Shown piece by piece: positions 20,166-36,252 of a stretch of DNA of 64,000 bases. This DNA comes from a virus. Within the stretch, counting starts at the first letter, position 1; the number at the start of each line of letters is the position of its first letter. Under the pieces are notes generated by a model. The model worked only from the letters and a program-made list of their open reading frames with translations, was not told the origin of the DNA and did not search any database. The DNA lies in the IMG/VR virus record IMGVR_UViG_3300046698_000515, positions 1 through 64,000 of that record; one strand, 5' to 3'. Made by a program: the position numbers and the translations under genes.

Positions 20166-20537
20166 ATGATTACACTTGATGCTATTACAACCTATTTATT
20201 AAATCCCTATACAGGAACAATTCTGTTTGTTATTGCGTTAGGCTACTTAGTTCGTGCAATGCCATTTATTACTAACAAATGGATTCCGTTTTTGGGTATT
20301 AGTTTCGGAAGTTTGTTCTTTTTAATTATTGCACCTATAACAATAAAACCAGACCCAGAACATTCTTGGAATTGGTATGTAATGATCTGGGGTATTGGTT
20401 TAATTCTATCTGCTTTCGCATGGTTGATTCATCTAATTGTAATTTCACGATTAGAAGATTATGTTCGTACAAAAATTCCTGCTGTAGATGTATGGTTTAG
20501 AAAGACTAGTGATTCATCATCTAAATCATCTTCTTAA
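20166..20537 (+). CDS. probable holin-like membrane protein
   Basis: 123 residues, starting directly after the previous stop. Three hydrophobic helices (about residues 15-34, 40-60, 70-92) and a Ser/Lys-rich tail (TSDSSSKSSS). Size and topology fit class I holins, but no family signature is visible. Confidence 0.55.
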   Translation: MITLDAITTYLLNPYTGTILFVIALGYLVRAMPFITNKWIPFLGISFGSLFFLIIAPITIKPDPEHSWNWYVMIWGIGLILSAFAWLIHLIVISRLEDYVRTKIPAVDVWFRKTSDSSSKSSS

Positions 20538-20559
20538 TTATTTGTCAAAAGTAACACAC

Positions 20560-20587
20560 TTGATACCTAAAAATTCTATGTTATTAT
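20560..20587 (+). promoter_or_regulatory. sigma70-type promoter
   Basis: TTGATA at 20560-20565, 16-bp spacer, TATTAT at 20582-20587, before the gene at 20594. Confidence 0.65.
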
Positions 20588-20593
20588 GATCAC

Positions 20594-21118
20594 ATGGAAA
20601 TGGTAAAAATAGAACTATGTGAAGTGCCTGTTGCAATTGATAATTATCAGGCATATGATGAAAGACAGCTGCCAAAAATTCTCCTTGGATTTCAAATAAA
20701 AAATAAATTTGATGAAAATCGGCTTCAAATTAAACCTGAATATAATCCTAAACGTATAGTTCATTTTCGTAAATTTATTGAACTTGAACCAGTTTTCTTC
20801 TATGGTATAGAAATTGATGTTAAACAATATTATAAAGGATTTTTTAATTCACTAATAGGAATTAATTCTATTGAACTGTATCAGCATCAATTAAAACAAG
20901 TTGAACTTAGTTGTGATGATTGTTACCATTATTGTTGTGATGGAATATATCCAATAGATTTAAAACATCTTTCGAAAATAATAAACAACATTAGAAATTT
21001 TCCTATAAATGATCTCCCAAGCATGTTAGAAATAACAAAAGAGCAATGGTATCTCAATATTGGTGCTTTTGGTATTTATGTTCTTAGAACTTGCAAAACA
21101 TATAATAACAAAATTTAG
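20594..21118 (+). CDS. hypothetical protein
   Basis: 174 residues. The -10 box is only 7 bases upstream of the ATG; a second ATG (20600) may be used. Contains CDDCYHYCC near residue 115, a possible metal site. Not recognised. Confidence 0.7.
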   Translation: MEMVKIELCEVPVAIDNYQAYDERQLPKILLGFQIKNKFDENRLQIKPEYNPKRIVHFRKFIELEPVFFYGIEIDVKQYYKGFFNSLIGINSIELYQHQLKQVELSCDDCYHYCCDGIYPIDLKHLSKIINNIRNFPINDLPSMLEITKEQWYLNIGAFGIYVLRTCKTYNNKI

Positions 21119-21168
21119 TTGTAAAATAGTTTTTGTTTTGAAAATTTGTATTAAATATTTTTCTTAAT

Positions 21169-23028
21169 ATGATAAAAACAGAAACAATCCCTGTTGATTT
21201 TTCGCAAGAAATTTCAGATTTTGTATTCCATAGTAAATATGCTCGGTACAATGAAACTTACAATAGAAGAGAAACTTGGGATGAATGTGTAAATCGAGTA
21301 ACTCGAATGCATCTCGTAAAATATAAATTTTTACCTCAGGAAGATTTAGATAAAGTAAAATGGGCATTTCAATTAGTAAAAGAGAAAAAGGTTGTCCCAT
21401 CGATGAGGAGCATGCAGTTTGGTGGTAAAGCTGTCGATGTTAAAAATGAAAGGCTTTATAATTGTTCTGTTCGAAATGTTGATAGTATTCGTTCGTTTGC
21501 TGAAATCTTTTTTATGCTTCTTTGTGGAAATGGTGTGGGGATGAATGTTACAGAACAATTTATTAATCGGCTCCCTCTTTTGGTTGATGCATCTGATAAG
21601 ACCGGAACAGTTACAACATATAGTGTGCAAGATAATATTGAAGGTTGGGCTGATAGTGTTGAAGCATTACTTTTATGTTATTTTCGAAATACAGCTTATA
21701 CAGGTAGAAAGATAATTTTTGACTACAGTAAGGTGAGACCAGAAGGTGCACCTGTTAAAACAGGTGGCGGAAAAGCTCCAGGATATAAAGGATTAAAACG
21801 TTCACATAAGAAAATAAAAGAACTTTTAGATCATATAATTGAGGAAGAAGGACAAACACGACTTAAACCTATTAACGCATATGATATCATAATGCATATG
21901 GCAGATGCCACACTTTCCGGAGGTATTAGGCGAAGTGCTTGTAGTATTGTTTTTAATAAACAGGATCAGGAAATGATGACTGCTAAAACATTTTCTGAAG
22001 TTGTAAAACACACTAAGTTTGTTTTTGATGATGATACTAAAAAATGGAACGGTAAAATTACATTAAAAAATAAAAAACGATATGAAGTTGAATTAACTGA
22101 TTTTGAATATAATGATAAAACTAACAAAAATAACTTATTAGATTATAACAGAATTTGCTGGATACATGTCAATCCACAAAGGGCTCGAAGTAATAATAGT
22201 GTTCTTCTTTTACGTAGTGAAGCTAAAAAAGAAGATATTGAAGAGATTGTAAATAATGCAAGAATTTATGGTGAACCTGGGGTAGCTTTTTGTAATGATT
22301 TGCGACAAAATTTTAACCCTTGTTTCGAAATAAATTTTTTGCCGATAACTTCTGATGGTGTATGTGGAGCTCAGTTTTGCAATTTATCAAGTATAAATGG
22401 AGCAAAAATAACATCACAAAAAGATTTTTTACAAGCAACTGAAGCAGCAACTATTATAGGAACTTTGCAAGCTGGTTATACAGATTTTAAATATTTAAGT
22501 CAAGCGGCAAAACAATTAACTGAAGAAGAAGCATTGCTTGGTGTTTCATTAACAGGATGGATGGATAGTCCGGATATTTTATTAAAGCCAGAAAATCAAA
22601 AAGAATCTGCTCAGCATGCCATTAAAACAAATGTTAAATGGGCTAAAAAAATTGGAATTAACCCTGCTGCACGTATTACATGTGTAAAACCAGAGGGTTG
22701 CCTTGTTCCTGAGACAAAAATTAAAACATCATGCGGAAATTTAACTTTAAAAGAAATTTTTGAGATTAATGATTATGATTTTGAACAAGTATTAAAGTAT
22801 AAAGATACCTTTTTACCTGTGAATGAGAAGATATTTATTTATAATAAAAATAATGACTTAGAATTAATAACTCAATTATATATTAATGGAAATTCTGAAA
22901 CAATTAACATTGAACTTGAAGACGGTTCTAATATCTGCTGTACAAAGGATCATCAATTTTTAACACAAAGAGGGTGGGTTAAAGCAAGTGATTTAACAAA
23001 TCAAGATGATATAAAACAAGGTAATTAG
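21169..23028 (+). CDS. nrdJ: class II ribonucleotide reductase N-extein fused to N-intein
   Basis: 619 residues. Residues 1-510 are the main part of an adenosylcobalamin-dependent ribonucleotide reductase: LYNCSVRNV (first redox Cys), NPCFEI (radical-site Cys), FCNLSSIN (second redox Cys) and substrate loops such as GGGKAPGYKG. Length and order match the monomeric NrdJ type, so it makes dNTPs for phage DNA using B12. At Cys 511 (nt 22699) the extein sequence VKPEG is interrupted by an intein N-half of 109 residues: CLVPETKI opens block A and TKDHQFLTQRGWVKASDL is block B with its TxxH motif. The frame stops there. The rest of the protein is in a separate gene at 24241. Confidence 0.92.
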   Translation: MIKTETIPVDFSQEISDFVFHSKYARYNETYNRRETWDECVNRVTRMHLVKYKFLPQEDLDKVKWAFQLVKEKKVVPSMRSMQFGGKAVDVKNERLYNCSVRNVDSIRSFAEIFFMLLCGNGVGMNVTEQFINRLPLLVDASDKTGTVTTYSVQDNIEGWADSVEALLLCYFRNTAYTGRKIIFDYSKVRPEGAPVKTGGGKAPGYKGLKRSHKKIKELLDHIIEEEGQTRLKPINAYDIIMHMADATLSGGIRRSACSIVFNKQDQEMMTAKTFSEVVKHTKFVFDDDTKKWNGKITLKNKKRYEVELTDFEYNDKTNKNNLLDYNRICWIHVNPQRARSNNSVLLLRSEAKKEDIEEIVNNARIYGEPGVAFCNDLRQNFNPCFEINFLPITSDGVCGAQFCNLSSINGAKITSQKDFLQATEAATIIGTLQAGYTDFKYLSQAAKQLTEEEALLGVSLTGWMDSPDILLKPENQKESAQHAIKTNVKWAKKIGINPAARITCVKPEGCLVPETKIKTSCGNLTLKEIFEINDYDFEQVLKYKDTFLPVNEKIFIYNKNNDLELITQLYINGNSETINIELEDGSNICCTKDHQFLTQRGWVKASDLTNQDDIKQGN

Positions 23029-23078
23029 TTGTTACATGCTGGAAACCTACAATAAATAATATAAGTAATTGCGGGCTT

Positions 23079-24272
23079 ATGAAATATTATAATTACTTCC
23101 AATGGATACGAACACGTAAATATCATTTATTAAAATTAATCCTTAAAATTTGTCATGGTAATAAAGCATTAACACAATTAAGAAAATTAACACATACTAA
23201 GAAATATTATATTTTTAGATATGGTGAAAAGTTAGGAACAGAACGGTATGATGAAACGTTAAGAATAACAAAATTAAAAGGAACAAAACAGTTTTATATT
23301 GAAAAATATGGTGAAGATATTGGAATAAAAAAATATCTAGAGAAAAATAAAAAATTAAGTGTTAGTTATAAAGCTTTAAAAAATAATGGTCATACAGATG
23401 AAGAAATAAAACAAATACGTAAAAAACATGCTGATGGATCCAAACACACAAGAGAAACATATATTAAAAAATATGGTGAGAAGGAAGGGCAAGAAAAATA
23501 TAAAATATGGATGACACAACAGCGGGTAAGCGTTCGCTCTGTAAAAGAATTAATTGAGAGAAAGGGGTTAACAAAAGAGCAAGCAGAAATATATGTTAGT
23601 AAGTTACAAACGAGAGATTTAAATTTCTTTATTAAGAAATATGGTATAGAAATAGGTACATTAAAATTTCAACATTGCTGTAATGAGCGTAGATATAAAA
23701 ATTCGTTACAGTTTTATAAAGAAAAATATGGGACAGAGGAAGGTACACGAAAATATAAAGATAGGATAAAAAGACAAACCTCACACCATTCCTTTGAAAG
23801 TTTTATTAAAAGATTTGGTGAAAAAGAAGGTATTATTAAATTTAAAGATTTACAAAAAAGAAAAGCAGAAACACGAATGAGACAATTATCATGTGGATCA
23901 AAAAAACAATTAAATTTCTCAAGGTTACTATATGATAAATTACCACTAGATTTAAAAACACAATATATTGGAACCCCTGTTACAAAAAGCAGAGCTATAT
24001 TCTTTGAAAAGAATGAATGTAGATTAAAATTTTGTGTACCTGATATATTAATTGGTAAATTAATAATAGAATTTGACGGTACATATTGGCATAATAATAG
24101 CTTAGAGGTAATGGAGCGTGATACATTTAAAACAATTTTACTTGTACAAAAAGGATATACCTTAATTAGAGTAAAGGAAAAAGATTATGATAATAATCAA
24201 GAGCAATGTATTATAAATACTCTTAATCAAATTTTATATTATGAAAATCAAAAAAGTAACAAAGGAGAATAA
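23079..24272 (+). CDS. free-standing homing endonuclease inside the split intein
   Basis: 397 residues, lying between the intein halves. Six repeats of the type FYIEKYGEDIGIKKY span residues ~45-255 and probably bind DNA. The C-terminal domain has a Vsr-like nuclease core: LIIEFDGTYWHN (~residues 327-338) followed by ERDTFKTILLVQKGYTLIRVKEKDYD. Such endonucleases are known from fractured phage genes with split inteins. It overlaps the C-intein gene by 32 bp. It would cut intein-less nrdJ alleles and drive spread of the intein. Confidence 0.85.
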   Translation: MKYYNYFQWIRTRKYHLLKLILKICHGNKALTQLRKLTHTKKYYIFRYGEKLGTERYDETLRITKLKGTKQFYIEKYGEDIGIKKYLEKNKKLSVSYKALKNNGHTDEEIKQIRKKHADGSKHTRETYIKKYGEKEGQEKYKIWMTQQRVSVRSVKELIERKGLTKEQAEIYVSKLQTRDLNFFIKKYGIEIGTLKFQHCCNERRYKNSLQFYKEKYGTEEGTRKYKDRIKRQTSHHSFESFIKRFGEKEGIIKFKDLQKRKAETRMRQLSCGSKKQLNFSRLLYDKLPLDLKTQYIGTPVTKSRAIFFEKNECRLKFCVPDILIGKLIIEFDGTYWHNNSLEVMERDTFKTILLVQKGYTLIRVKEKDYDNNQEQCIINTLNQILYYENQKSNKGE

Positions 24273-24954
24273 CAAATTTACGGTAGATATTGAAATTGCA
24301 GATTCACATACATATCAATTAGCAAATGGTTGTATTAGTCATAATACCTCCAGCCTTATTTTAGGCTCTGCTTCAGGCATCCATCCTCACCATGCACGAA
24401 AATATTTTAGACGGATTCAATGTAATAAACACGAGGCAGTATATCAACACTTTAAAGAAAATAATCCTCATACATGTGAACCAAGTATATGGAGTGCTAA
24501 CAAGACAGATGACGTTGTAACTTTTCCAATTACTGTTTCTGATAAAGCAATTATTAAGAGCGATTTATCTGCAATTAAACATCTTGAAATAATTAAATCA
24601 ACACAACAAAATTGGGTAATACCAGGAACTAATACTGAAGTAAATAAAAAACCATTATATCATAATATTAGTGCGACTGTTTTAATAAAAGATGATGAAT
24701 GGAATGATGTAATAAATTATCTTTATGAAAATAGAGAATTTTTTACCGCTGTTTCTCTTTTGCCAGCAATAGGTGATAAGCTTTATAAGCAAGCTCCCTT
24801 AGAAGCTGTTAGTACACCTGAAGACGAAGAAAAGTGGAAGCAAATAGTCACTAATTATAAATCTGTTAATTATAAAGAATTAAAAGAAGATGAAGATGAA
24901 ACTGAATTAATGGCTGCTGCTGCCTGTGCTGGTGGAGCCTGCGAAGTAATTTAG
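24241..24954 (+). CDS. nrdJ: C-intein fused to class II ribonucleotide reductase C-extein
   Basis: 237 residues. Residues 1-35 are the intein C-half, ending in block F/G (DIEIADSHTYQLANGCISHN). Splicing would join the following Thr 36 to the upstream VKPEG. Residues 36-237 complete NrdJ: TSSLILGSASGIHPHHARKY (nucleotide-binding part) and a C-terminal CAGGAC Cys pair that re-reduces the active site. Trans-splicing of this product with 21169-23028 is needed for an active enzyme. Confidence 0.9.
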   Translation: MKIKKVTKENNKFTVDIEIADSHTYQLANGCISHNTSSLILGSASGIHPHHARKYFRRIQCNKHEAVYQHFKENNPHTCEPSIWSANKTDDVVTFPITVSDKAIIKSDLSAIKHLEIIKSTQQNWVIPGTNTEVNKKPLYHNISATVLIKDDEWNDVINYLYENREFFTAVSLLPAIGDKLYKQAPLEAVSTPEDEEKWKQIVTNYKSVNYKELKEDEDETELMAAAACAGGACEVI

Positions 24955-24956
24955 TA

Positions 24957-24985
24957 TTGATTTATAATAACAAAGTTGTTATTAT
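24957..24985 (+). promoter_or_regulatory. sigma70-type promoter
   Basis: TTGATT at 24957-24962, 17-bp spacer, TATTAT at 24980-24985, just upstream of ATG 24992. Confidence 0.65.
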
Positions 24986-24991
24986 ATATTC

Positions 24992-25294
24992 ATGTTTGAT
25001 AGTAATAAACCAAATTGTTTTGAATGTAAATGGTATCGTCCTTTACCTTATGATGCACATATAGAATGTGTTCATCCAAAAATTGATGTTTCTGATAAGT
25101 TTCTCACTCCTTTAATGATGATGAGTGGATTAGTTTCTCCAGCTGAAAAACGTCTTAATGTTTATGGTGATTCACATGGAATAAAAATGGGTTGGTTTAT
25201 GTGGCCTCTAAATTTTAATCCTACTTGGTTATTAACTTGTGATGGATTTGAAAGAAAGGAGGTTAAACAAACAAATGAAGAAACAAAAGTATAA
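24992..25294 (+). CDS. hypothetical protein with Cys motif
   Basis: 100 residues. CFECKWYRPLP, a Cys-His pair (CVHP) and a final CDGFE form a four-Cys site typical of small phage metal-binding proteins. Trp/Phe-rich core (GWFMWPLNFNPTWLL). Confidence 0.65.
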   Translation: MFDSNKPNCFECKWYRPLPYDAHIECVHPKIDVSDKFLTPLMMMSGLVSPAEKRLNVYGDSHGIKMGWFMWPLNFNPTWLLTCDGFERKEVKQTNEETKV

Positions 25295-25397
25295 TCGAAA
25301 CAGTTCGAATACTATTAATGGAAATGCAATCAGTCTCGCTGTTAGTCCTACAAACGCAACGAACACAACGAACGACTCCACACGTGCAACAAAGTAA
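25275..25397 (+). CDS. small Asn/Thr-rich ORF
   Basis: 40 residues overlapping the previous gene end (ATG 25275). Very rich in Asn, Ser and Thr (NRNSSNTINGNAISLAV). The DNA contains repeats of ACGAAC. Coding status doubtful. Confidence 0.3.
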   Translation: MKKQKYNRNSSNTINGNAISLAVSPTNATNTTNDSTRATK

Positions 25398-25510
25398 GCT
25401 ATAAGCCGAAAAGTAATCGCAACGAGTCAACGAACGTAACGAACGCAAAACAGATGGCAGTTAGCCGAGCAGTAAGTCAAAAGAAGTTAATAGAATTAGA
25501 AATAACCTGA

Positions 25511-27960: not shown

Positions 27961-28034
27961 GCAGCATTAATTTAGTGGTAAAATTTCTAACTACCAATTA
28001 GAGTTCATCAGTCCAATTCTGATATGCTGCTCCA
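27961..28034 (+). tRNA. tRNA-Gly(ACC)
   Basis: Acceptor GCAGCAT/ATGCTGC, D arm with GG (ATTTAGTGGTAAAAT), anticodon stem TCTAA/TTAGA with loop CTACCAA, T loop TCCAATT, discriminator T, CCA encoded. A genomic ACC anticodon for Gly is uncommon. Confidence 0.8.
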
Positions 28035-28802
28035 ATTTTAAATAGAGCTTGATTTTTAATATAAAGCCTATATAATGTATTTGTAATTAAGATTTACTTA
28101 CGTTTAGTTTTGTCAAAGATGAAATGTAAGTGAAACAGAACCGCGCAATGCGGTTGAGGGGTGGGAAACAGAGAGGCGCAGAAGGAAAGCGGAGAGGTAG
28201 GAGAGGAAAGTAAGTGGTTTGCGGCTTAGGTCGTTTGTTGTTTACCAGACTCGAGGAAAAGTCCTCGCCAAGAAAAAGCCGCGTTAATTTATTCCAGTAT
28301 TAGACCATTAAGGAGATAGGACAGCCTGTAGAGCTGCCGTGCTTTGTGCACCAGGGGGGGGTTCGATATTCCCTCATGCGGGACCATTTTGTGTTATTGA
28401 TTGAGTGTTCATCAAATCAGTTACCTTGACAGGTGTTAACGGTTCAATTCCCTAGCTGCTGGTGCAGGTTAATGTCTGTCAGAAATTTTTAGAGTTGCTT
28501 TTAATCTTAAAAGAAGCTATATTATATTTGTTCTTTGAATTTCTCAGCAGCATTAGTGCTGGTGAGGTTGAGCCTGGAGACGAAAGCATCGTTGATGTAA
28601 CTCTAAGTTTGCTGGTTGGTAAGTTTTCAAAGGTACATCAGGTTGTAACATTAGATAAAAGATGAAAATACCAGCTAAGTACTTGACGTAACGTCAAGCT
28701 TGACGTTTAGGTCGCGTTCAATGCGACCTGTTCGGTTAAGGGTAGGACAAAGGTGCACATAAAACCTACCAATACCTGCAATTTTGAGTTTGTTCTTTGA
28801 AT
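28035..28802 (+). ncRNA. long non-coding structured region, possible giant ncRNA
   Basis: About 770 nt without a convincing gene, more GC-rich than its surroundings. It has a purine-rich block (28150-28210), a tRNA-like 3' part near 28310-28375 (T-arm with TTCGATA, CATGCGGGACCA end, run of eight G), alternating palindromes TTGACGTAACGTCAA/AACGTCAAGCTTGACGTT (28683-28707), a perfect AGGTCGC/GCGACCT hairpin (28709-28729) and a GGTAGG/CCTACC stem. GOLLD-type giant RNAs occur next to phage tRNAs, so that is one candidate; I cannot confirm it. Confidence 0.4.
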
Positions 28803-29209
28803 GGGCCTGAAATGATTCGATTGTTTGTGTTAAGTTAATAATTATATGTCGAAGATGATCCTTGGCTTCGTAAAAAATGGGTCAAAACTAAATGCTAACA
28901 AAATTAGCCAAGCACGTGCATTAGCAACTCTCGCAGTTGATCGCGCATTTGCTCGAGTTCCAGCAATGGCTTAAGGCTGTTGTCTTGAACATTGTTAACC
29001 AGTGTTGCTGTCTGTCATATTGGATTAACATCGTTTACAGACTGGTTACTGTTAGTTGTGCCGAAACAGTAATAAGATTAAGCACAAGATTGTGAGCAGA
29101 GACGTGCTGGTACGGATGTTCATAACGACGTAGTGAAATAACCAGATAAACATATACAAGTTGTTAAAGTGATCAAACAAAACTCGGCTCGATGCCGACA
29201 GGTCCACCA
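28803..29209 (+). ncRNA. ssrA: transfer-messenger RNA (tmRNA)
   Basis: 407 nt, one-piece. The 5' end GGGCCTGAAATGATTCGATT and the 3' end CAGGTCCACCA pair as an acceptor stem (GGGCCTG/CAGGTCC) with CCA encoded; TGATTCGA matches the tmRNA D-loop region and TCGGCTCGATGCCGA is the T arm. CTTCGTAAAAAATGG precedes the tag frame, as in bacterial tmRNAs. The tag probably resumes at GCT 28894, about 92 nt from the 5' end as in E. coli. It runs 26 codons (starts ANKIS, ends RVPAMA) to TAA 28972. This is longer than usual tags (about 10-16 residues), and the AMA end is unlike the common LAA. It would rescue stalled ribosomes. Confidence 0.85.
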
Positions 29210-29216
29210 ATTTTAT

Positions 29217-29393
29217 GCCCGGTTACCTCAGCGGTTGGTAAATTAAGTATCCGAACACTTTGCAAATGTGATACTAGTTAGAGAGTAGCAGAGTTAGTAA
29301 GAGAAAGATTTACTCGAGGCGAAAGTAATTAAATGCGCGCGAGAGGGCCTAGCAATAGCTAGAAAGTTGATAATTCGAGTCCATCACTGGGTA
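29217..29393 (+). tRNA. tRNA-like gene with ~90-nt insertion (degenerate)
   Basis: Ends pair as an acceptor stem (GCCCGGT 29217 with ACTGGGT 29386) and a D arm with GGTTGG is present. The anticodon region contains TTTGCAAA (Cys GCA or Ala TGC) in a poor stem, and the T arm has the loop TTCGAGT but only three of five stem pairs. About 90 nt separate anticodon and T arms. Possibly a disrupted tRNA or an intron-bearing one. Confidence 0.35.
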
Positions 29394-29404
29394 TCCTAAT
29401 TTAT

Positions 29405-29490
29405 ACGTTGGTGGCTCGACAAGTAAGGCAACGGTCTCCAAAACCGTACACGATAATTCGTATATGTAGGTGCAATACCTATCCAACGTG
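29405..29490 (+). tRNA. tRNA-Trp(CCA) with long variable arm
   Basis: Acceptor ACGTTGG/CCAACGT, anticodon stem ACGGT/ACCGT with loop CTCCAAA, T arm GTAGG-TGCAATA-CCTAT. The variable region is 18 nt and can pair (ACGA/TCGT), unlike normal Trp tRNAs. Elbow positions are A18 and G55. Discriminator G as usual for Trp. Confidence 0.75.
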
Positions 29491-29584
29491 CAGAATTTCT
29501 TTTTTGCTTGCTTTTTCTGAAATGTATAATACAATATACAAGTTATCTTTTCAGGCGCTGTGGTTGTTACTATCCAAGAAATGT

Positions 29585-29665
29585 AACTGGTGGAGACGGT
29601 GAACGAAGAACTCGTTCCCTCCCGCAAATGAGTTACAGTTTTCCAAGCTGTGGCTCATTTGTGTT
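29585..29665 (+). ncRNA. two-hairpin small RNA candidate
   Basis: GAACGA/TCGTTC within a GGAG/CTCC stem, followed by a stem CAAATGAG/CTCATTTG (29623-29662) enclosing ACAG/CTGT. No gene here; sits between two tRNAs. Confidence 0.4.
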
Positions 29666-29747
29666 TAAATAATTTGGTCACTACCAGTGGTAGATGGCTC
29701 TAAAAAGGTTCCTCGGTACCAGCCTGGCGAAACCGAGTTAATTTATC

Positions 29748-29824
29748 GGGTTATGTGGCAACAAAGGTGTTGCACTTGCTTTGCACGCAAGTTAAAAGCT
29801 AGGGTGCGTTACCCTCATGATCCA
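29748..29824 (+). tRNA. tRNA-Ala(TGC)
   Basis: Acceptor GGGTTAT/ATGATCC (two wobble pairs), D stem GCAAC/GTTGC, anticodon stem CTTGC/GCAAG with loop TTTGCAC, T loop TGCGTTA. CCA not encoded. Confidence 0.7.
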
Positions 29825-29832
29825 CATTTTAT

Positions 29833-29907
29833 CGCTCAATCGTCTAAAATCTAGGACGCAGTCCCTTGGGACTGAAATGCCAAGGTGAAGTCTGGCGCGA
29901 GCGACCA
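29833..29907 (+). tRNA. tRNA, probable Pro(TGG) or Gln(TTG), degenerate
   Basis: CGCTCAA and GCGAGCG pair in five positions, D stem GTC/GAC, anticodon helix CAGTC/GACTG with a six-base loop CCTTGG, and a weak T arm GCCA/TGGC. ACCA at the 3' end. The loop length leaves the anticodon uncertain. Confidence 0.4.
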
Positions 29908-29942
29908 ATTTATAAAACCATATTGTGATTAAATAATTACAT

Positions 29943-30137
29943 ATGCCTATAATTCCTATTGTTGTTACTCTTATTGTTATCGGAGTTTTGCTCTGGCTTG
30001 CTAACACTTATATCCCTATGGACGAAAAGATTAAGAAAATCTTAAATGCTGTTGTAGTGATATTAGTTGTCGTTTGGTTGCTCGATGTGTTTGGAGCGTT
30101 TAGTTATGTTAATAACATTCAATGGCATCACCGATAA
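29943..30137 (+). CDS. small membrane protein
   Basis: 64 residues with two membrane helices (IIPIVVTLIVIGVLLWLA; ILNAVVVILVVVWLLDVFG) separated by YIPMDEKIKK. This pattern is widespread in small bacterial and phage inner membrane proteins. Lies among tRNA genes. Confidence 0.7.
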   Translation: MPIIPIVVTLIVIGVLLWLANTYIPMDEKIKKILNAVVVILVVVWLLDVFGAFSYVNNIQWHHR

Positions 30138-30145
30138 TTTTTGAG

Positions 30146-30174
30146 TTGCATTTTTTCGTATAAGTATTTAAAAT
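30146..30174 (+). promoter_or_regulatory. sigma70-type promoter
   Basis: TTGCAT at 30146-30151, 17-bp spacer, TAAAAT at 30169-30174, right before the Hsp20 gene. Confidence 0.6.
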
Positions 30175-30180
30175 ATTTGT

Positions 30181-30573
30181 ATGAAAAATATAGCACTTAT
30201 AAAAGCTGATGAGGTGATTGAACCAGAATTAGTTGACGATAATTTTCCTCGTTCTACTCTTTTTGATGATATTGATAAATTTACTCAACGTATATTTCAT
30301 GGATTTAATAGTGGAAGCTGCTTAGAAGAAAAACAAGGTAATTTTATTCTGCAGTTTGAGATTCCTGGTTTTGATGAGAGTGAAATTGACATTACCATAG
30401 AAGGAACAACAATATTTGTTAGAGGTATTTCAAAAAATAAACAAACAGAATTTTCATATCAATTACCTCAACCAGTTGTAATAAGCAAAGCTACTTCAAT
30501 ATTTAAAAATGGTATTTTAACTGTTGTTCTTCCGAAGAGTAAAATTAAGAAGCAGAGAATTTTAATTTCATAA
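30181..30573 (+). CDS. small heat-shock protein (Hsp20/alpha-crystallin)
   Basis: 130 residues. The alpha-crystallin domain is clear: FEIPGFDESEIDITIEGTTI (~residues 58-77), FVRGISKNKQ, and the closing motif ATSIFKNGILTVVLPK (~105-120). Phages of the T4-like group, especially cyanophages, often carry Hsp20. It would hold unfolded proteins during infection or assembly. Own sigma70 promoter, so expressed early. Confidence 0.9.
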   Translation: MKNIALIKADEVIEPELVDDNFPRSTLFDDIDKFTQRIFHGFNSGSCLEEKQGNFILQFEIPGFDESEIDITIEGTTIFVRGISKNKQTEFSYQLPQPVVISKATSIFKNGILTVVLPKSKIKKQRILIS

Positions 30574-30579
30574 TTTATA

Positions 30580-30653
30580 GCTGGCGGGGGGTTAGATCCT
30601 GGACGGGCCCATAACCCGTTTTAATCAGATGCGATTTCTGAGCGTAGCGACCA
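30580..30653 (+). tRNA. tRNA-Met(CAT), C33
   Basis: Anticodon stem ACGGG/CCCGT with loop CCCATAA, so position 33 is C, not U. T arm TCAGA-TGCGATT-TCTGA; CCA encoded. The acceptor stem pairs poorly (about four pairs), so the exact ends are unsure. Elbow is A18/G55. Confidence 0.65.
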
Positions 30654-30657
30654 TTTA

Positions 30658-30732
30658 TCAGGTACGTAGTGTAATTAGTAGCATTTTACCTTGTGACGGT
30701 AACGGTTCTGATGCGAATTCAGACTACCTGAA
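30658..30732 (+). tRNA. tRNA-His(GTG)
   Basis: Acceptor TCAGGTA/TACCTGA, anticodon stem TTACC/GGTAA with loop TTGTGAC, T arm TCTGA-TGCGAAT-TCAGA. D loop TTAG (A18) with T loop G55. CCA not encoded. Confidence 0.8.
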
Positions 30733-30905
30733 GATTCTTCTTGCAAATTACATTATCATTTAATAGAATTTTACTCACAGCGGGCCTAGGAAATTATCCA
30801 TGGAATAATTATACCACACGCTGATCTGTTCAGGAATGACCGGTGAGAGAATAGGTGCATGGTTGACAATTGATGTCAATAATTCCAGCTTAAACTCTGA
30901 GTACA

Positions 30906-31013
30906 TCAGTAGCACATGAGCAAATTGTTTCGGTAGAAGTCCGACTATCCTTGAAACGTGAAGGAATGCAAGAATAAAAAGCCTTGACCTCGAATGTGCT
31001 ACTGAGAATTTTT
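30906..31013 (+). ncRNA. small RNA closed by a 12-bp stem
   Basis: TCAGTAGCACAT (30906-30917) is perfectly complementary to ATGTGCTACTGA (30994-31005), followed by GAATTTTT. The 76 nt between carry a CCTT/AAGG hairpin. Candidate ncRNA with its own terminator; class unknown. Confidence 0.45.
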
Positions 31014-31016
31014 AAT

Positions 31017-31102
31017 GGTAGTGTGGCCGAAAAGGAAACTGGAAGAACTAACTAGCTTAGAACTAGATGGCCTTGGAAGTTCGACTCTTCTCACTGCTAC
31101 CA
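31017..31102 (+). tRNA. tRNA-Leu(TAG)
   Basis: Acceptor GGTAGTG/CACTGCT, anticodon helix CTAG/CTAG with loop CTTAGAA, T arm GGAAG-TTCGACT-CTTCT, discriminator A, CCA encoded. GG in the D loop and T55: the standard elbow. Confidence 0.75.
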
Positions 31103-31258
31103 TTTTACTACATTAGTAAATGTAGACCGCGGCAGGTGGTAGATACTTATCTAGAGGATACCTAACTTAGTGCACATAATTATAGCTTGATCGAGTTGCG
31201 CGAGCAATGCTAAACAGCTGGTACTTCCGAATATGTCGAAATGCTATCTGTAATTTAT

Positions 31259-31340
31259 GCTACAGTGTACGAAACCAGAATAGAAGATGGATAAATTTCA
31301 AAAATTTATGTACTTGAAGGTGCAAGTCCTTTCTGTAGTA
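31259..31340 (+). tRNA. tRNA-Leu(CAA), overlapped by homing endonuclease
   Basis: Acceptor GCTACAG/CTGTAGT, anticodon stem TAAAT/ATTTA with loop TTCAAAA, T arm GAAGG-TGCAAGT-CCTTT. The last 35 nt are antisense to the end of the endonuclease gene 31306-32013. A18/G55 elbow; no encoded CCA. Confidence 0.7.
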
Positions 31341-32013
31341 GTAATTTTTGATCAATGATAGAAATGATAATATCTAAATATTTTTGACCGGTTGTTGGTT
31401 TAAAATATAGTTGGTGGGAAGTATCAATAATTACCAATTCAATTTCTCTTTCTAAACATGCTTGAAATTTCCTATTGTCATTATTTTGAATTTTTGAGAG
31501 TAATTCTTTTCCATGAATAGGTTCATAATGGTAAATACCATTTAATTCTACTGCTAATTTTAGAGATGGAATATAAATATCAAGTTCTGAATTTATTGCT
31601 TCCTTTTTATTGAACAGATTTTCTAATTTTGGATATTTTTGAATTAATTGTTGTTCTATCCATTTTTCTAATTTAGATCGTCTTGTACCATGCTTTTTAT
31701 GGGTATTATTATATGTTGCAGCACATGATTGTGTACAAAACATATTAGTTGTCTTTTTATGTTTATTACGGGTTGCTGAAGCAACCACTTTAAAGAGTAC
31801 ATTACAATTTTTACATATACAAGATACTTGTGTTATTCTTGATTTATGCGCACATTTTCCACTACAATATATAACATTTCTATTATTTCTTTTTGCTAAA
31901 TAAATAGCATGTTTTGTTGTTTGAAAGGTTTTATTGCAGTGTGGGCAAATAGTATCTATAATTTTTTCATGATGTTTTGCAGATTTATATTGCGTTTTAT
32001 TATATTTAACCAT
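31306..32013 (-). CDS. zinc-finger homing endonuclease overlapping a tRNA
   Basis: 235 residues. Three Cys fingers (CPHC, CSGKC, CKNC/CTQSC) cover residues ~20-100. The C-terminal nuclease has the pattern LEKWIEQQL...SELDIYIPSLKLAVELNGIYHY, a Vsr/EDxHD-like core. The last ~11 codons are antisense to the 3' half of tRNA-Leu(CAA). It has a late-type TTAAATAATT box just upstream of the start. Probably targets tRNA-gene DNA, as T4 SegB does in its tRNA cluster (inference). Confidence 0.8.
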   Translation of the reverse strand: MVKYNKTQYKSAKHHEKIIDTICPHCNKTFQTTKHAIYLAKRNNRNVIYCSGKCAHKSRITQVSCICKNCNVLFKVVASATRNKHKKTTNMFCTQSCAATYNNTHKKHGTRRSKLEKWIEQQLIQKYPKLENLFNKKEAINSELDIYIPSLKLAVELNGIYHYEPIHGKELLSKIQNNDNRKFQACLEREIELVIIDTSHQLYFKPTTGQKYLDIIISIIDQKLLLQKGLAPSST

Positions 32014-32066
32014 ACAATTATTTAATCGAAAATAGGATTTCGAATCCGGTTTAGATAACCTATTTC

Positions 32067-32142
32067 GGGCTTGTAGACCAATAGAAGAGTCAACGGTCCT
32101 AAAAACCGTACAGTGCGGGGGCAGGACCCGCCAGGCCTACCA
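32067..32142 (+). tRNA. tRNA-Leu(TAA), C33, short variable loop
   Basis: Acceptor GGGCTTG/CAGGCCT, D stem GAC/GTC, anticodon stem ACGGT/ACCGT with loop CCTAAAA (C33), T arm GCGGG-GGCAGGA-CCCGC, CCA encoded. The variable loop is only about five bases, unlike a normal Leu tRNA. A18/G55 elbow. Confidence 0.75.
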
Positions 32143-32152
32143 TTTTAAAATT

Positions 32153-32329
32153 ATGAGCATAAGAACTAAAAATGATACACATCACGGATGTAAACCCGAT
32201 GACTGTCATTGTGAAGAACACTGCAATGATAAGCCTTTAAGATCTCTTTTAGAACTGTTTCTCATTGTAGGAAATATGACCCTTTGGTTCTATAATATTT
32301 TAGCTCTTGTAAATGTAATGAAACATTAA
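32153..32329 (+). CDS. small membrane protein with Cys/His cluster
   Basis: 58 residues. HHGCKPDDCHCEEHCND (residues 10-26) followed by a membrane helix (LFLIVGNMTLWFYNILALV). Ends at the base before the next gene. Unknown. Confidence 0.55.
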   Translation: MSIRTKNDTHHGCKPDDCHCEEHCNDKPLRSLLELFLIVGNMTLWFYNILALVNVMKH

Positions 32330-32473
32330 ATGAAAAAGAAAACTAAATGGCCAACTTTAAAAGGTAGATTATCTCAACCATTAACTACTCGAAAAGAGGC
32401 AGTAGAGCAATTGCAAAAGTTTGGTATGCCTTTAACAGAGCTAGCAAAGAAATATTTAAAAAATGAAAAATAG
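32330..32473 (+). CDS. small hypothetical protein
   Basis: 47 residues (MKKKTKWPTLKGRLSQPL...). Directly abuts the upstream stop and overlaps the next gene by 11 bp, which supports coding. Confidence 0.55.
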   Translation: MKKKTKWPTLKGRLSQPLTTRKEAVEQLQKFGMPLTELAKKYLKNEK

Positions 32474-32627
32474 TCTCCGTAAAGACGCAATAACTAAAGG
32501 TGGTTGGGGTCGAGGAATGAATAATAAATTATCACGTACTTCTAAACATAATCTTGATCGTAAAGTAGATAAGCGCAGACGGAGAGAAGGAAAAGAATTT
32601 AATGACCCTATCGACTACGTTAGCTAG
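32463..32627 (+). CDS. small basic protein running into tRNA-Glu
   Basis: 54 residues (MKNSLRKDAITKGGWGRGMN...). Basic C-terminus KVDKRRRREGKEF. Its last eight codons lie within the 5' part of tRNA-Glu(TTC). The opening resembles a small conserved phage family. Confidence 0.6.
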   Translation: MKNSLRKDAITKGGWGRGMNNKLSRTSKHNLDRKVDKRRRREGKEFNDPIDYVS

Positions 32628-32680
32628 GTCGGAAGACCTTCAATCTTCAGGAGCGAGGGCAGCACTCGCTAGGGTCACCA
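32604..32680 (+). tRNA. tRNA-Glu(TTC), C33
   Basis: Acceptor GACCCTA/TAGGGTC, anticodon stem GAAGA/TCTTC with loop CCTTCAA (C33), T arm GCGAG-GGCAGCA-CTCGC, CCA encoded. D loop TTAG: A18 with G55. Confidence 0.85.
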
Positions 32681-32688
32681 ATTTATAA

Positions 32689-32764
32689 CCTCGTGAAGAT
32701 GAAGAGTGGAATCACAGGCTTGTCACGCCTGAATAAGCAGGCGCACCTCCTGTCGCGAGGACCA
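32689..32764 (+). tRNA. tRNA-Asp(GTC)
   Basis: Acceptor CCTCGTG/CGCGAGG, D stem GAT/ATC, anticodon stem CAGGC/GCCTG with loop TTGTCAC, T arm GCAGG-CGCACCT-CCTGT, CCA encoded. Confidence 0.85.
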
Positions 32765-32781
32765 ATTTCTGACAATGTATA

Positions 32782-32852
32782 GGTAACAATCGTCTAATGG
32801 CAGGATGCCGGCGCGAAGGTCGGAGATATTGGTTCAAGTCCAGATGCTACCA
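32782..32852 (+). tRNA. tRNA, anticodon uncertain (GAA, CGA or GCG)
   Basis: Acceptor GGTAACA/TGCTACC, anticodon helix CCGGC/GTCGG around a six-base loop GCGAAG, T loop TTCAAGT. The short loop prevents a sure assignment. Confidence 0.5.
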
Positions 32853-32943
32853 ACGTGATGTATATTGTTGTGAAAATGAGTCTGTATAGTTTAGTGCATT
32901 TCACAGTGTGCTCCGCCATTGGGCTCATATTGAAGTAGTTAGT

Positions 32944-33017
32944 AAGGATTATGGTGCAATGGTCAGACACAGCGGCTCCCAAGTCGCTTGTCCAAGTTCG
33001 AGTCTTGGTAATTTTTG
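32944..33017 (+). tRNA. tRNA-Gly(CCC)
   Basis: Acceptor AAGGATT/AATTTTT (two G-U pairs), D arm with GG, anticodon helix AGCGGC/GTCGCT around TCCCAA, T arm CCAAG-TTCGAGT-CTTGG. The loop is one base short, otherwise Gly-like. Confidence 0.6.
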
Positions 33018-33038
33018 CTAACTACGGATTTTATTTTT

Positions 33039-33113
33039 GCGGTATAGGTGTTTATAGATACATACGAGACTTCCAATCTTGGGTAGAGGGTGTGATACCC
33101 TCACACCGCTCCA
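33039..33113 (+). tRNA. tRNA-Gly(TCC)
   Basis: Acceptor GCGGTAT/ACACCGC, anticodon stem CGAGA/TCTTG with loop CTTCCAA, T arm GAGGG-TGTGATA-CCCTC, discriminator T, CCA encoded. Elbow A18/G55. Confidence 0.8.
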
Positions 33114-33121
33114 ATTTTAGA

Positions 33122-33128
33122 ATAAATA
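33122..33128 (+). promoter_or_regulatory. T4-type late promoter
   Basis: ATAAATA, eight bases before ATG 33137. Confidence 0.5.
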
Positions 33129-33136
33129 ATAGTGTG

Positions 33137-33424
33137 ATGCCATTTAAAATTTTTTACGAAAAAATTGAATCTTGTGCTATTAAATTAGAAGATGGAAGAA
33201 TCTTTACAGGATCAGATCATGAAAGTGCAGCTGCGGAAGCTCATACAGCAGGAGTTCAATGGACTGATATTGAAAAATGTATTTGTGGTTTTATGATAGA
33301 TGGAGAATTTTTTAATAGAGAACAAGCTTTTAATATTGCAATTTCAAATGGTATTCTTTGTTTGAAACAACCATGTACTCCAGGTAGATTAGATTCTTAC
33401 GATTTACCACACTTACATCCGTAA
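33137..33424 (+). CDS. hypothetical protein
   Basis: 95 residues. ATG 33137 was chosen because the upstream open frame is tRNA sequence. Starts MPFKIFYEKIESCAIKLEDG, with a GRIFTGSDHESAAAEAH segment. Not recognised. Confidence 0.65.
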   Translation: MPFKIFYEKIESCAIKLEDGRIFTGSDHESAAAEAHTAGVQWTDIEKCICGFMIDGEFFNREQAFNIAISNGILCLKQPCTPGRLDSYDLPHLHP

Positions 33425-33432
33425 GCATAATA

Positions 33433-33460
33433 TTGATTTTCATATTTTGTTTGTTATTAT
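33433..33460 (+). promoter_or_regulatory. sigma70-type promoter
   Basis: TTGATT at 33433-33438, 16-bp spacer, TATTAT at 33455-33460. The string TAAGCATAATATTGATTT here recurs at 33624-33641. Confidence 0.65.
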
Positions 33461-33469
33461 TTCTTTACT

Positions 33470-33625
33470 ATGAAAGTAAATGCTAAAGCTGATTTAACTG
33501 GTAATCTTGTTGTAATTAATGATAATTGGTATTATCTTTGTAAGATTGATGAACCTAAACATTTATCTACTAAACCATTAGTTAATTTTACTATACAGGG
33601 TACTTTTACAAAAGCTAAAAGATAA
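33470..33625 (+). CDS. small hypothetical protein
   Basis: 51 residues, beta-rich (NLVVINDNWYYLCKIDEPK). Own promoter; a second promoter of the same sequence follows for the next gene. Confidence 0.6.
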   Translation: MKVNAKADLTGNLVVINDNWYYLCKIDEPKHLSTKPLVNFTIQGTFTKAKR

Positions 33626-33670
33626 GCATAATATTGATTTCAATAAACTAGTTATTATCATGTCTAAGTT

Positions 33671-33880
33671 ATGGAAAATATAAACTTAAATATAGTTAAA
33701 GGTACACTTAACAAATTAAGTGTACTTCTTGATACACAAATTGAAAAGTATACTGCAGCAAAAAAGCCTACAAATGTAGATTTTGAAAGAATTCATAAAA
33801 CACTTTCTATATATGAATCAGTTGTAGATATATATGGGAATCTTATTGGTATTGATAAAATGGGTAAGGAAGAATTGTAA
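33671..33880 (+). CDS. small helical protein
   Basis: 69 residues, amphipathic helices (LNIVKGTLNKLSVLLDTQIEK). Ends 8 bp before tRNA-Thr. Unknown. Confidence 0.6.
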   Translation: MENINLNIVKGTLNKLSVLLDTQIEKYTAAKKPTNVDFERIHKTLSIYESVVDIYGNLIGIDKMGKEEL

Positions 33881-33887
33881 TTTATTT

Positions 33888-33978
33888 GCCTGTTTGGCTC
33901 AGCGGCGACAGCACCATCTTTGTAAGTTGGCAGCTTTTTAATAAGCTCACGGGAGTTCAAATCTCTCAACAGGCTCCA
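33888..33978 (+). tRNA. tRNA-Thr(TGT) with long variable arm
   Basis: Acceptor GCCTGTT/AACAGGC, anticodon helix CCATC/GTTGG (one mismatch) with loop TTTGTAA, T arm GGGAG-TTCAAAT-CTCTC, discriminator T, CCA. The variable arm is 20 nt with an AGCTT/AAGCT stem, normally seen only in Leu, Ser and Tyr tRNAs. Confidence 0.8.
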
Positions 33979-33986
33979 AATTTATT

Positions 33987-34074
33987 GCCAGTATGCCTCA
34001 GTAGCGACAGGACCTGTTTCGTAAACAGATAACATTTAAAAGTGTTCACGGAAGTGTAAATCTTTCTACTGGCT
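33987..34074 (+). tRNA. tRNA-Thr(CGT) with long variable arm
   Basis: Acceptor GCCAGTA/TACTGGC, anticodon stem pairing CTGT/ACAG with loop TTCGTAA, T arm GGAAG-TGTAAAT-CTTTC. Variable arm of 20 nt with AACA/TGTT. Its 3' end is antisense to the endonuclease gene 34046-35020. Confidence 0.75.
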
Positions 34075-35020
34075 CCGCTTCTATAAGTTGTTTAATACTT
34101 TCCCATGATAACTCATTTTTATTAAGAATTAAAAGTTTTTGAGAAATTAGTTTTTTAACTTTTTGTATTTTTTCTGCATCTGTTTGTTGGCAAAAATTAT
34201 TTTTAGGATCAAGATATGTATTATAATCTGTTAAATAAAAATCAGGATAATATTTCTTATCAATTCCGAGATTGTTTACCCATGGTATTGGTGAGGGTCT
34301 TATCCATTTAATTTTGTTTTCGTCAAGTGATTGTGCAACTTTAAATTCCCAACTTGACTCCAACCATACCTTACCAGCAAATGGTGAAGTATAGTAACCT
34401 GTTTTATGGTAATGGTTTTTATTTATACATAAGTAAGTTTTACCAATATTTACACGAACTAAATGCAGACATTTACCGCAATACTTTCTTTTATGTCTAT
34501 GTATGAATTTAATAATTGTACCACATCCACCTTTACATAATTTTGGTTGTTTATTATATTCATTTAGTATAGTTTGTTTTCTAATCGCAGCATATTTTTG
34601 TAATTTAAGAAGTTTTTGTTTCTCCTTCTCTGGTGATAATTTTCCTGAGTATCCATTTTTATTTCGTTCTTTATTACTAAATGTTGCTGAGCATGTATGT
34701 GAACAAAAATTATGCTGTCGGATCGCATTAAGACACTTTCTAACTGATTTTTTACAAGTTGTACAAAAAATTGTTCTTGTAGTAGATGGATAAGTATATA
34801 ATTTTCCACATTTACTAGAACAAAAAATAGCAGTTGTATTTTTACTTTCTTTATTTCGTTGCTTCTTTCGTCTTACTGAGCCAAGAATATTATATTTCTT
34901 TCTAGTTTGTATTTTATTACATTGTTTACATTTAAAAGGAATATTATCATTCCATTTTGAGTTAACAAATGTTTCTTTATCAATTAATAAACAATCTAGT
35001 AGTTCTTTAGGTAAATCCAT
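34046..35020 (-). CDS. zinc-finger homing endonuclease overlapping a tRNA
   Basis: 324 residues. Multiple Cys fingers over residues 1-190 (CKQC, CSSKC, CTTC, CKGGC, CGKC). The C-terminal nuclease (residues ~215-300) has WLESSWEFKVAQSL, KKYYPDFYLTDY and TYLDPKN, a PD-(D/E)xK or Vsr-like arrangement. Last ~10 codons are antisense to the 3' end of tRNA-Thr(CGT). An AAATAATT late-type box precedes the start. Same architecture as 31306-32013. Confidence 0.8.
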   Translation of the reverse strand: MDLPKELLDCLLIDKETFVNSKWNDNIPFKCKQCNKIQTRKKYNILGSVRRKKQRNKESKNTTAIFCSSKCGKLYTYPSTTRTIFCTTCKKSVRKCLNAIRQHNFCSHTCSATFSNKERNKNGYSGKLSPEKEKQKLLKLQKYAAIRKQTILNEYNKQPKLCKGGCGTIIKFIHRHKRKYCGKCLHLVRVNIGKTYLCINKNHYHKTGYYTSPFAGKVWLESSWEFKVAQSLDENKIKWIRPSPIPWVNNLGIDKKYYPDFYLTDYNTYLDPKNNFCQQTDAEKIQKVKKLISQKLLILNKNELSWESIKQLIEAEPVERFTLP

Positions 35021-35062
35021 ATATTAATTATTTAATGAAACATAGTCGCAATAACAAGGTGC

Positions 35063-35143
35063 GGCTCCTATAATAAAATTTGATACGGCTTCCTTAATCA
35101 AGAAGGTGGAAATAAAGCCGGAATGAGCGTACACTCCTGAGCC
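35063..35143 (+). tRNA. degenerate tRNA-like sequence
   Basis: GGCTC/GAGCC ends pair in five positions and an anticodon-like helix CTTC/GAAG encloses TTAATC. D and T arms are poor. May be a tRNA remnant. Confidence 0.25.
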
Positions 35144-35157
35144 CTCAAATAAATTTT

Positions 35158-35230
35158 GCCTCTGTAATTCAAAGATAGAATATTGCTTTGGTAAAGCAAA
35201 AACGTTTGGGATTGTTACCCACCTGAGGCT
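35158..35230 (+). tRNA. tRNA-Thr(GGT)
   Basis: Acceptor GCCTCTG/CTGAGGC (one mismatch), D stem ATTC/GAAT, anticodon stem TTGCT/AGCAA with loop TTGGTAA, T stem TGGG/CCCA. Short variable loop, unlike the other two Thr tRNAs. Confidence 0.7.
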
Positions 35231-35239
35231 CACTTTAAT

Positions 35240-35330
35240 GGCTAGTAAACTTAACAAGGTTAAGGGTTGTCTGCTAAACAACGCGCTCACCTAAGACGTG
35301 GGTCAGAGGCAGGATCTGTGCTAGCCGCCA
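35240..35330 (+). tRNA. tRNA-Ser(GCT)
   Basis: Acceptor GGCTAGT/GCTAGCC, anticodon stem GTTGT/ACAAC with loop CTGCTAA, long variable arm as expected for Ser, T loop GGCAGGA, discriminator G, CCA encoded. Confidence 0.85.
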
Positions 35331-35337
35331 TTTTTTA

Positions 35338-35365
35338 TTGAAATAAAAACATATTCTAATATAAT
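35338..35365 (+). promoter_or_regulatory. sigma70-type promoter
   Basis: TTGAAA at 35338-35343, 16-bp spacer, TATAAT at 35360-35365, seven bases before ATG 35372. Confidence 0.65.
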
Positions 35366-35371
35366 GTATCC

Positions 35372-35914: not shown

Positions 35915-35923
35915 ACAAATTTT

Positions 35924-36011
35924 GGAGGTAGTCCGGCATGGACGAGGACGCGATCCTGAAAATCGTCGCTGGTAAAAACAGTCGGGAGTTCGATTCTCTC
36001 TGCCTCCGCCA
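35924..36011 (+). tRNA. tRNA-Ser(TGA), C33
   Basis: Acceptor GGAGGTA/TGCCTCC, anticodon stem GCGAT/ATCGT with loop CCTGAAA (C33), variable arm CGCTG/CAGTC region, T arm GGGAG-TTCGATT-CTCTC, discriminator G, CCA encoded. Confidence 0.85.
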
Positions 36012-36057
36012 ATTTTACTTGATTATAATGAAATGTATTATATCATATTTTCTGAAC

Positions 36058-36146: not shown

Positions 36147-36152
36147 ATTTCT

Positions 36153-36244: not shown

Positions 36245-36252
36245 ATTTTCAT

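What the first reader, a model, noticed from the sequence alone, without database searches (positions are those of the whole stretch)
21169..24954. Fractured nrdJ: split intein with a free-standing endonuclease between the halves
NrdJ is interrupted after VKPEG by an N-intein (109 residues with blocks A and B). The C-intein (35 residues ending in HN) and C-extein are a separate gene. A Vsr-like endonuclease with six YG-x-n-G repeats lies between. This is the fractured-gene arrangement known from metagenomic phage sequences. The active reductase depends on protein trans-splicing with +1 Thr.
Basis: partly seen in the sequence, partly recalled or inferred. Interest (0 to 1): 0.75.

Follow-up and report, generated by a model that had tools for sequence, protein, structure and literature searches.

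The report
Split-intein phage nrdJ around an endonuclease
A phage gene for an enzyme that makes DNA building blocks is broken into two genes that each carry half of a self-splicing protein tag, with the gene for a target-seeking DNA-cutting enzyme lodged between them; this is a new and well-preserved example of a known arrangement, and relatives show that the tag and the cutter go together as a unit.

Summary
NrdJ (class II ribonucleotide reductase) stops after VKPEG. A 109-aa N-intein follows, then a stop (23026-23028), a 50-nt gap, a 397-aa endonuclease gene (six YG repeats plus a Vsr/EDxHD-like domain), and a gene starting with a 35-aa C-intein (..ISHN, +1 Thr) that overlaps the endonuclease by 32 nt. 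The joined exteins align without a gap to intact NrdJs. Sequencing error is unlikely: two more IMG/VR phages have the same split at the same residue, a third has the same C-half and endonuclease but is cut off 5', and other phage RNRs are split at the corresponding Gly|Thr. Close relatives have the site empty; one has a contiguous LAGLIDADG-like intein there. In 80 IMG/VR loci found with PolB-type relatives of the endonuclease, 74 sit between two split-intein halves and none shares one reading frame with both. This is the 'fractured gene' of Dassa et al. 2009: a new member of a known kind. It differs from the characterised NrdJ-1 split intein (site NPC|SEI, +1 Ser). Trans-splicing and cleavage are inferred, not shown.

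The parts
21169..22698 (+). NrdJ N-extein (class II RNR residues 1-510, ends VKPEG); holds the YNCS, NPCFE and FCNL active-site cysteines
   Evidence: (phrog_367 1.5e-79)
22699..23025 (+). N-terminal split-intein half, 109 aa (Cys1; block B CTKDH)
   Evidence: (Intein_splicing, E 1.6e-5, below curated cut-off)
23026..23028 (+). TAG stop ending the N-half gene; if read through, the same frame stops again at 23056
23029..23078 (+). 50-nt gap before the endonuclease start; no significant RNA fold
23079..24272 (+). Free-standing homing-endonuclease-like gene, 397 aa, in a different frame from both nrdJ halves
23217..23843 (+). Six [KR][YF]GxxxGxxx[YFW] repeats (endonuclease residues 47-255), predicted helical-hairpin array, presumed DNA-binding
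   Evidence: model confidence low overall
23994..24227 (+). Vsr/EDxHD-like nuclease domain (VPD, IIEFDG, YWH, ERD, KE)
24241..24345 (+). C-terminal split-intein half, 35 aa ending ISHN; first 32 nt overlap the endonuclease gene
24346..24954 (+). NrdJ C-extein with +1 Thr, C-terminal CAGGAC cysteine pair and stop codon
   Evidence: (phrog_367 2e-25)

Best explanation
A fractured nrdJ. Two separately translated polypeptides, NrdJ(1-510)-IntN and IntC-NrdJ(511-712), find each other through the split intein. The intein folds and splices in trans: Cys1 attack, transfer to +1 Thr511, Asn cyclisation. This leaves intact NrdJ and joins the KP-x-G|T-x-S loop. The gene between the halves encodes a homing endonuclease with a repeat array (presumed to bind DNA) and a Vsr/EDxHD-type nuclease. 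It most likely cuts intein-free nrdJ near the Gly|Thr codons, so that repair copies the whole IntN-endonuclease-IntC unit into the cut allele. Shown here: the anatomy, the site, intact catalytic residues, conservation of layout and site in independent phages, and joint descent of intein and endonuclease by host-gene type. Inferred: splicing, cleavage, target and homing.
For: Gapless joined exteins; close relatives with the site empty (L015, L016, L017; 162 uninterrupted NrdJ loci, not deduplicated). Same split at KPEG|T in L151 and L299, and the same C-half and endonuclease in L277, which is truncated 5'. Corresponding Gly|Thr (or Gly|Ser) split in other RNRs: L272, L278, L282, L287, L008. Of the 16 endonuclease loci first examined (window included), 14 are flanked by both intein halves in RNR, PolB or helicase genes, one (Lak-B5, L187) has an IntN-like upstream end but no IntC seen in the stretch read, and one (Cr30, L184) has none; in the PolB-type IMG/VR scan 74 of 80 have both halves and none share an ORF. 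Trees: the window endonuclease pairs with L299 (100/98); RNR and PolB inteins separate (100/100). Between window and L272 the intein and endonuclease are more alike (IntC 67%, IntN 41%, HEN 37%) than the exteins (26-30%), which fits transfer as a unit. IntN net -7 and the IntC N-terminus net +4 fit the electrostatic capture described for split inteins (PMC11923092). Trans-splicing has been measured for the split PolB intein of Aeromonas phage Aes123 (PMC11923092), whose phage carries a relative of this endonuclease (H109).
Against: No experiment. The structure match of the nuclease domain is weak by E-value and the model has low confidence. The window protein has GTYWH and RVKE where most relatives have GD-x-(W/F)H and (V/I)WE, so cleavage activity could be reduced. 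DNA around the insertion point is not unusually conserved among intact nrdJ genes (50-62nd percentile). No cut site was identified.
Confidence: 0.9

Rival explanations
1. Sequence error: one continuous intein with the endonuclease in frame, broken in the assembly by two single-base indels (near 23025-23028 and near 24249-24270).
For: The endonuclease frame is open from 23025 (one search gives 415 open codons against 397; frames) and the C-half frame is open from about 24217 (245 against 237), so two indels would suffice.
Against: L151 and L299 show the same three-gene layout with different gaps (90 and 19 nt) and overlaps (26 and 4 nt), and the L151 gap holds several in-frame stops. None of 74 related loci has both halves in one ORF. 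The split falls at the usual split-intein position.
Confidence: 0.03
2. An intron in the RNA rather than a split protein: a group I intron inside the intein removes the endonuclease region and gives one mRNA for a contiguous intein.
For: Group I introns with endonuclease ORFs are common in phage RNR genes (PMC3653736); the gap holds a short stretch, AATTGCGGG, that resembles a group I P element by eye (recalled, not tested).
Against: No Rfam family of this kind matches 20500-25500 even at E 10 with permissive filters, although no positive control was run; the gap fold is no better than shuffles; the endonuclease ORF runs into the C-intein coding region, leaving no room for a 3' core; related loci have gaps of only 13-36 nt or overlaps.
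Confidence: 0.03
3. Genes in pieces without splicing: the intein is dead and the two NrdJ pieces assemble non-covalently, with intein remnants attached.
For: Split RNR subunits without inteins are reported, e.g. Thermus phage phiYS40 nrdJ-a/b (PMC3653736).
Against: All class 1 intein catalytic residues are kept here and in diverged relatives; a decaying intein would not be expected to keep Cys1, TxxH, His-Asn and a +1 nucleophile at 37-54% identity.
Confidence: 0.05
4. The endonuclease is an unrelated selfish gene that landed in a pre-existing split intein and has no homing role for it.
For: Freestanding endonucleases are common in phages; one relative (Caulobacter phage Cr30, L184) lies next to a terminase gene and no intein.
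Against: The family is found almost only between intein halves and its tree follows the host-gene type of the inteins.
Confidence: 0.1

Closest known systems
'Fractured genes' (Dassa et al. 2009, cited in PMC3653736 and PMC6892783; text not held here)
   Same: A conserved enzyme gene broken by a split intein with a free-standing endonuclease gene between; Vsr-related endonuclease (recalled from the paper's abstract); RNR among the targets, with 7 nrdA and 2 nrdJ cases reported (PMC3653736)
   Different: Could not compare sequences directly with their loci; this one overlaps the C-half gene by 32 nt and has a six-repeat array
Aeromonas phage Aes508 / Aes123 PolB split intein with VSR endonuclease (JN377894, JN377899)
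   Same: Same three-gene layout, same endonuclease family, overlapping C-half gene; trans-splicing measured for Aes123 PolB1 (PMC11923092)
   Different: DNA polymerase rather than RNR; cysteine-less intein; separate intein clade (100/100)
NrdJ-1 split intein
   Same: Split intein in NrdJ from a marine metagenome; weak sequence match (8ubs, E 9e-5)
   Different: Inserted at NPC|SEI with obligate +1 Ser (PMC13123727); here the NPC|FEI site is uninterrupted and the intein is at KPEG|T with +1 Thr
I-Bth0305I (EDxHD homing endonuclease, 3r3p)
   Same: Nuclease domain, by profile and by fold
   Different: Described as an intron endonuclease; this one has a YG-repeat array and sits in a split intein
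Contiguous intein in NrdJ of L096
   Same: Inserted at exactly the same KPEG|T site in a close NrdJ relative (C-extein 68% identical)
   Different: One 370-aa intein in a single ORF with a LAGLIDADG-like endonuclease (by eye); IntN only 26% identical

Membership tests
Fractured gene (Dassa type) | Enzyme gene broken in two by a split intein, halves in separate ORFs | tested here: met
   independent loci
Fractured gene (Dassa type) | Free-standing endonuclease gene between the halves | tested here: met
Fractured gene (Dassa type) | Found mainly in phages | tested here: met
   record is an IMG/VR virus contig of 73,565 b with portal-like, tRNA and tmRNA genes
Fractured gene (Dassa type) | Halves restore the enzyme by protein trans-splicing | not testable with these tools
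   needs expression
Class 1 intein | Cys/Ser1, TxxH in block B, terminal His-Asn, +1 Cys/Ser/Thr | tested here: met
   C1, TKDH, HN, T+1
EDxHD / Vsr-like homing endonuclease | Catalytic Glu, Asp, His, Asp of the Vsr-like fold | tested here: met
   E331, H338, D348 invariant in 14 relatives, D322 in most; profile and fold hits to Vsr and 3r3p, weak E-values
EDxHD / Vsr-like homing endonuclease | Site-specific cleavage of the empty target allele | not testable with these tools
   needs purified protein
NrdJ-1 intein allele | Insertion at NPC|SEI with +1 Ser | tested here: not met
   NPC|FEI intact here, insertion at KPEG|T with +1 Thr
Group I intron | Conserved catalytic core around the endonuclease ORF | tested here: not met
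LAGLIDADG intein | Endonuclease domain in frame with the splicing domain | tested here: not met
   separate ORFs in different frames

The most novel reading that the evidence does not exclude
The YG-repeat Vsr-like endonucleases are a specialised family that lives almost only inside split inteins and travels with both intein halves as one three-gene unit, each clade following one conserved active-site loop (Gly|Thr in RNRs, the DTDS/GDS region in DNA polymerase B), with the overlap between endonuclease and C-half keeping the gene broken. In RNRs the unit has moved between reductases whose exteins are only about a quarter identical.
Probability: 0.45. Interest if true: 0.55.

Novelty: new member of a known kind. 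Interest (0 to 1): 0.42.

Why it matters
It adds a well-preserved split intein with +1 Thr at an RNR site other than that of NrdJ-1, which is a candidate for protein-engineering tests. The same residue is seen empty, with a contiguous LAGLIDADG-like intein, and with the split intein and Vsr-like endonuclease in close relatives, so how contiguous and split inteins arise and replace each other can be studied at one site. The tight link between one endonuclease family and split inteins makes homing of split inteins directly testable.

Tried and rejected
Group I intron inside the intein: no Rfam match, no special fold in the gap; the KLEP7 nrdJ break I checked gave no intron hit either, so it could not serve as a positive control. 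Contiguous intein broken by errors: rejected on independent loci. Unusual DNA conservation at the insertion point as a sign of a homing target: not found. Lack of a Shine-Dalgarno site before the C-half gene as evidence against separate translation: rejected, because ORFs throughout the window lack them (7 of 50, background 12%). Close relatives of the window endonuclease by exact peptides in IMG/VR: none found; an alignment of all 14 was too diverse to search with, so subsets were used. Pfam PF02867 does not detect even this NrdJ, so it cannot tell whether the phage has another RNR. Foldseek on the low-confidence model gave no match better than E 0.4, although the EDxHD domain was rank 2. The Dassa 2009 paper is not in the library, so their loci could not be compared directly.

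Full report
What is there. The window is part of a 73,565-base IMG/VR virus record. Three plus-strand ORFs lie in a row: 21169-23028 (619 aa), 23079-24272 (397 aa) and 24241-24954 (237 aa). The first is NrdJ residues 1-510 ending VKPEG plus 109 residues starting CLVPETKIKT. The third starts with 35 residues ending CISHN, then continues NrdJ at Thr511. PHROGs places both outer ORFs in one ribonucleotide reductase family, the first over profile positions 33-520 and the third over 520-696. Joined at Gly510|Thr511 the exteins align through the junction, without a gap, to phage NrdJs of Microcystis, Vibrio, Rhizobium and Oceanospirillum phages and to an IMG/VR relative.

The intein. IntN plus IntC match solved inteins over both halves (gp41-1, E 6e-6; a DnaE intein, E 1e-5; NrdJ-1, E 9e-5). 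Cys1, TKDH in block B, His-Asn at the end and +1 Thr are all kept. The split is where most split inteins are split, giving about 100 and 40 residues (PMC11923092). The N-half is acidic (-7) and the start of the C-half basic (+4), the complementary charge expected for fragments that meet by electrostatic capture (PMC11923092).

The endonuclease. Six copies of YGx3Gx3[YFW] occur in 397 residues; shuffled sequences never gave more than two. AlphaFold2, at low overall confidence, draws the repeats as helical hairpins. The C-terminal domain has weak Pfam matches to MTES_1575 and DUF559. A profile of 14 relatives found four PDB sequences only, three Vsr and I-Bth0305I, at E 0.04-0.23, and the model's second-ranked fold match is I-Bth0305I (probability 0.96, E 0.45). 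Weak singly, these agree. Conserved positions are E331, G334, H338 and D348 in all 14, and D322 in most.

Is the split real? For this contig alone two single-base changes would fuse the three ORFs, because the endonuclease frame is open from 23025 and the C-half frame from about 24217. Relatives settle it. L151 has the same three genes split at the same KPEG|T, with a 90-nt gap holding several stops and a 26-nt overlap. L299, on a 353,772-base contig, has the same with a 19-nt gap and a 4-nt overlap. L277 shows the same C-half and endonuclease but is cut off 5'. More distant RNRs (L272, L278, L282, L287, and L008 from a 462-kb uncultured phage) have the split at the corresponding G|T or G|S.

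States of the site. In close relatives L015, L016 (64-65% identical) and L017 (56%) the site is empty; 162 loci fetched with NrdJ queries, not deduplicated, have it uninterrupted. L018 also has it empty but carries a contiguous intein elsewhere in NrdJ. L096 has a contiguous 370-aa intein with a LAGLIDADG-like domain at exactly KPEG|T, only distantly related to the split one (IntN 26%).

The family. Searching phage records with the L151 endonuclease gave 46 records. Of 16 distinct loci examined in all, window included, 14 have both intein halves around the endonuclease (RNR, PolB, or, in L188 with an atypically short N-half, a gp41-like helicase), Lak-B5 has only the upstream one in the stretch read, and Caulobacter phage Cr30 has none. 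An IMG/VR scan with PolB-type members returned 80 loci: 74 with both halves, none in one ORF, 5 with one half, of which 4 lie near a contig end, and 1 with neither; near-identical contigs are included, and the queries were themselves fractured PolB loci, so this is not an unbiased sample. A broader scan of 57 loci gave 21 with both halves, 21 with only a C-half found, 2 with only an N-half and 13 with neither, using profiles trained mainly on PolB and RNR inteins. Trees of endonucleases and of inteins both tend to separate by host gene (strongly for inteins, with weak deep support for endonucleases), and both pair the window with L299 (100/98 and 83/89). Between window and L272 the intein and endonuclease are more similar than the exteins (41-67% and 37% against 26-30%), as expected if the unit moved between reductases; unequal rates could also contribute.

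How it most likely works. Two proteins are made, the split intein joins them and leaves, and NrdJ becomes whole. Since the YNCS, NPC and FCNL cysteines lie in the first piece and the C-terminal CAGGAC pair in the second, neither half should be an active enzyme alone (inference from class II RNR chemistry). The endonuclease most likely cuts intein-free nrdJ near the junction and so spreads the unit (inference from the family). No unusual DNA conservation marks the site.

Comparison with the known. This is the arrangement named fractured genes by Dassa et al. 2009, for which two nrdJ cases are on record (PMC3653736); that paper is not held, so I could not test whether either uses this site. The layout is already annotated in cultured Aeromonas phage Aes508, and trans-splicing has been measured for the Aes123 PolB split intein (PMC11923092). 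NrdJ-1, the characterised NrdJ split intein, is at NPC|SEI with obligate +1 Ser (PMC13123727), so this is another site. Verdict: real, correctly read, a new member of a known kind.

Noticed in passing
G000:70138-70725 (outside the window; L014:4998-7496): The portal-like gene of the same phage holds a contiguous intein (Intein_splicing 44.7 bits, above cut-off; PGG|CLAMDT ... FTKN|SNLGQ), so this phage has one split and one unsplit intein.
   Followed up: partly
window 42578-43465: One ORF joins a recombination endonuclease VII domain (residues 64-139, E 4e-20) to a dCMP deaminase domain (147-257, E 6e-24); possibly an endonuclease lodged in a metabolic gene.
   Followed up: no
window 28803-29209 and tRNAs 27961-39707: tmRNA plus about ten tRNA genes in the phage.
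   Followed up: no
whole window: Genes lack Shine-Dalgarno sites (7 of 50 against 12% background), suggesting a host with SD-poor translation such as Bacteroidota.
   Followed up: partly
L018:4953-8033: A NrdJ relative carries a contiguous intein at a different site (RIFN|C), with the KPEG|T site empty.
   Followed up: partly
L006:1162-1339 (phage KLEP7): nrdJ broken at the NPC codon by about 180 nt with no Rfam intron match.
   Followed up: no
L186:1174-4964 (Campylobacter phage CP21): nrdA fractured by a split intein and a relative of the endonuclease whose ORF (272 aa) ends before the nuclease domain, perhaps a decaying copy.
   Followed up: no
window 49275-50171: QueF-like 7-cyano-7-deazaguanine reductase gene in the phage, perhaps for DNA modification.
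   Followed up: no
L014:8499-9563: Protein with tandem NQLTSLQGAPSKVRGDFYC repeats near the end of the record.
   Followed up: no
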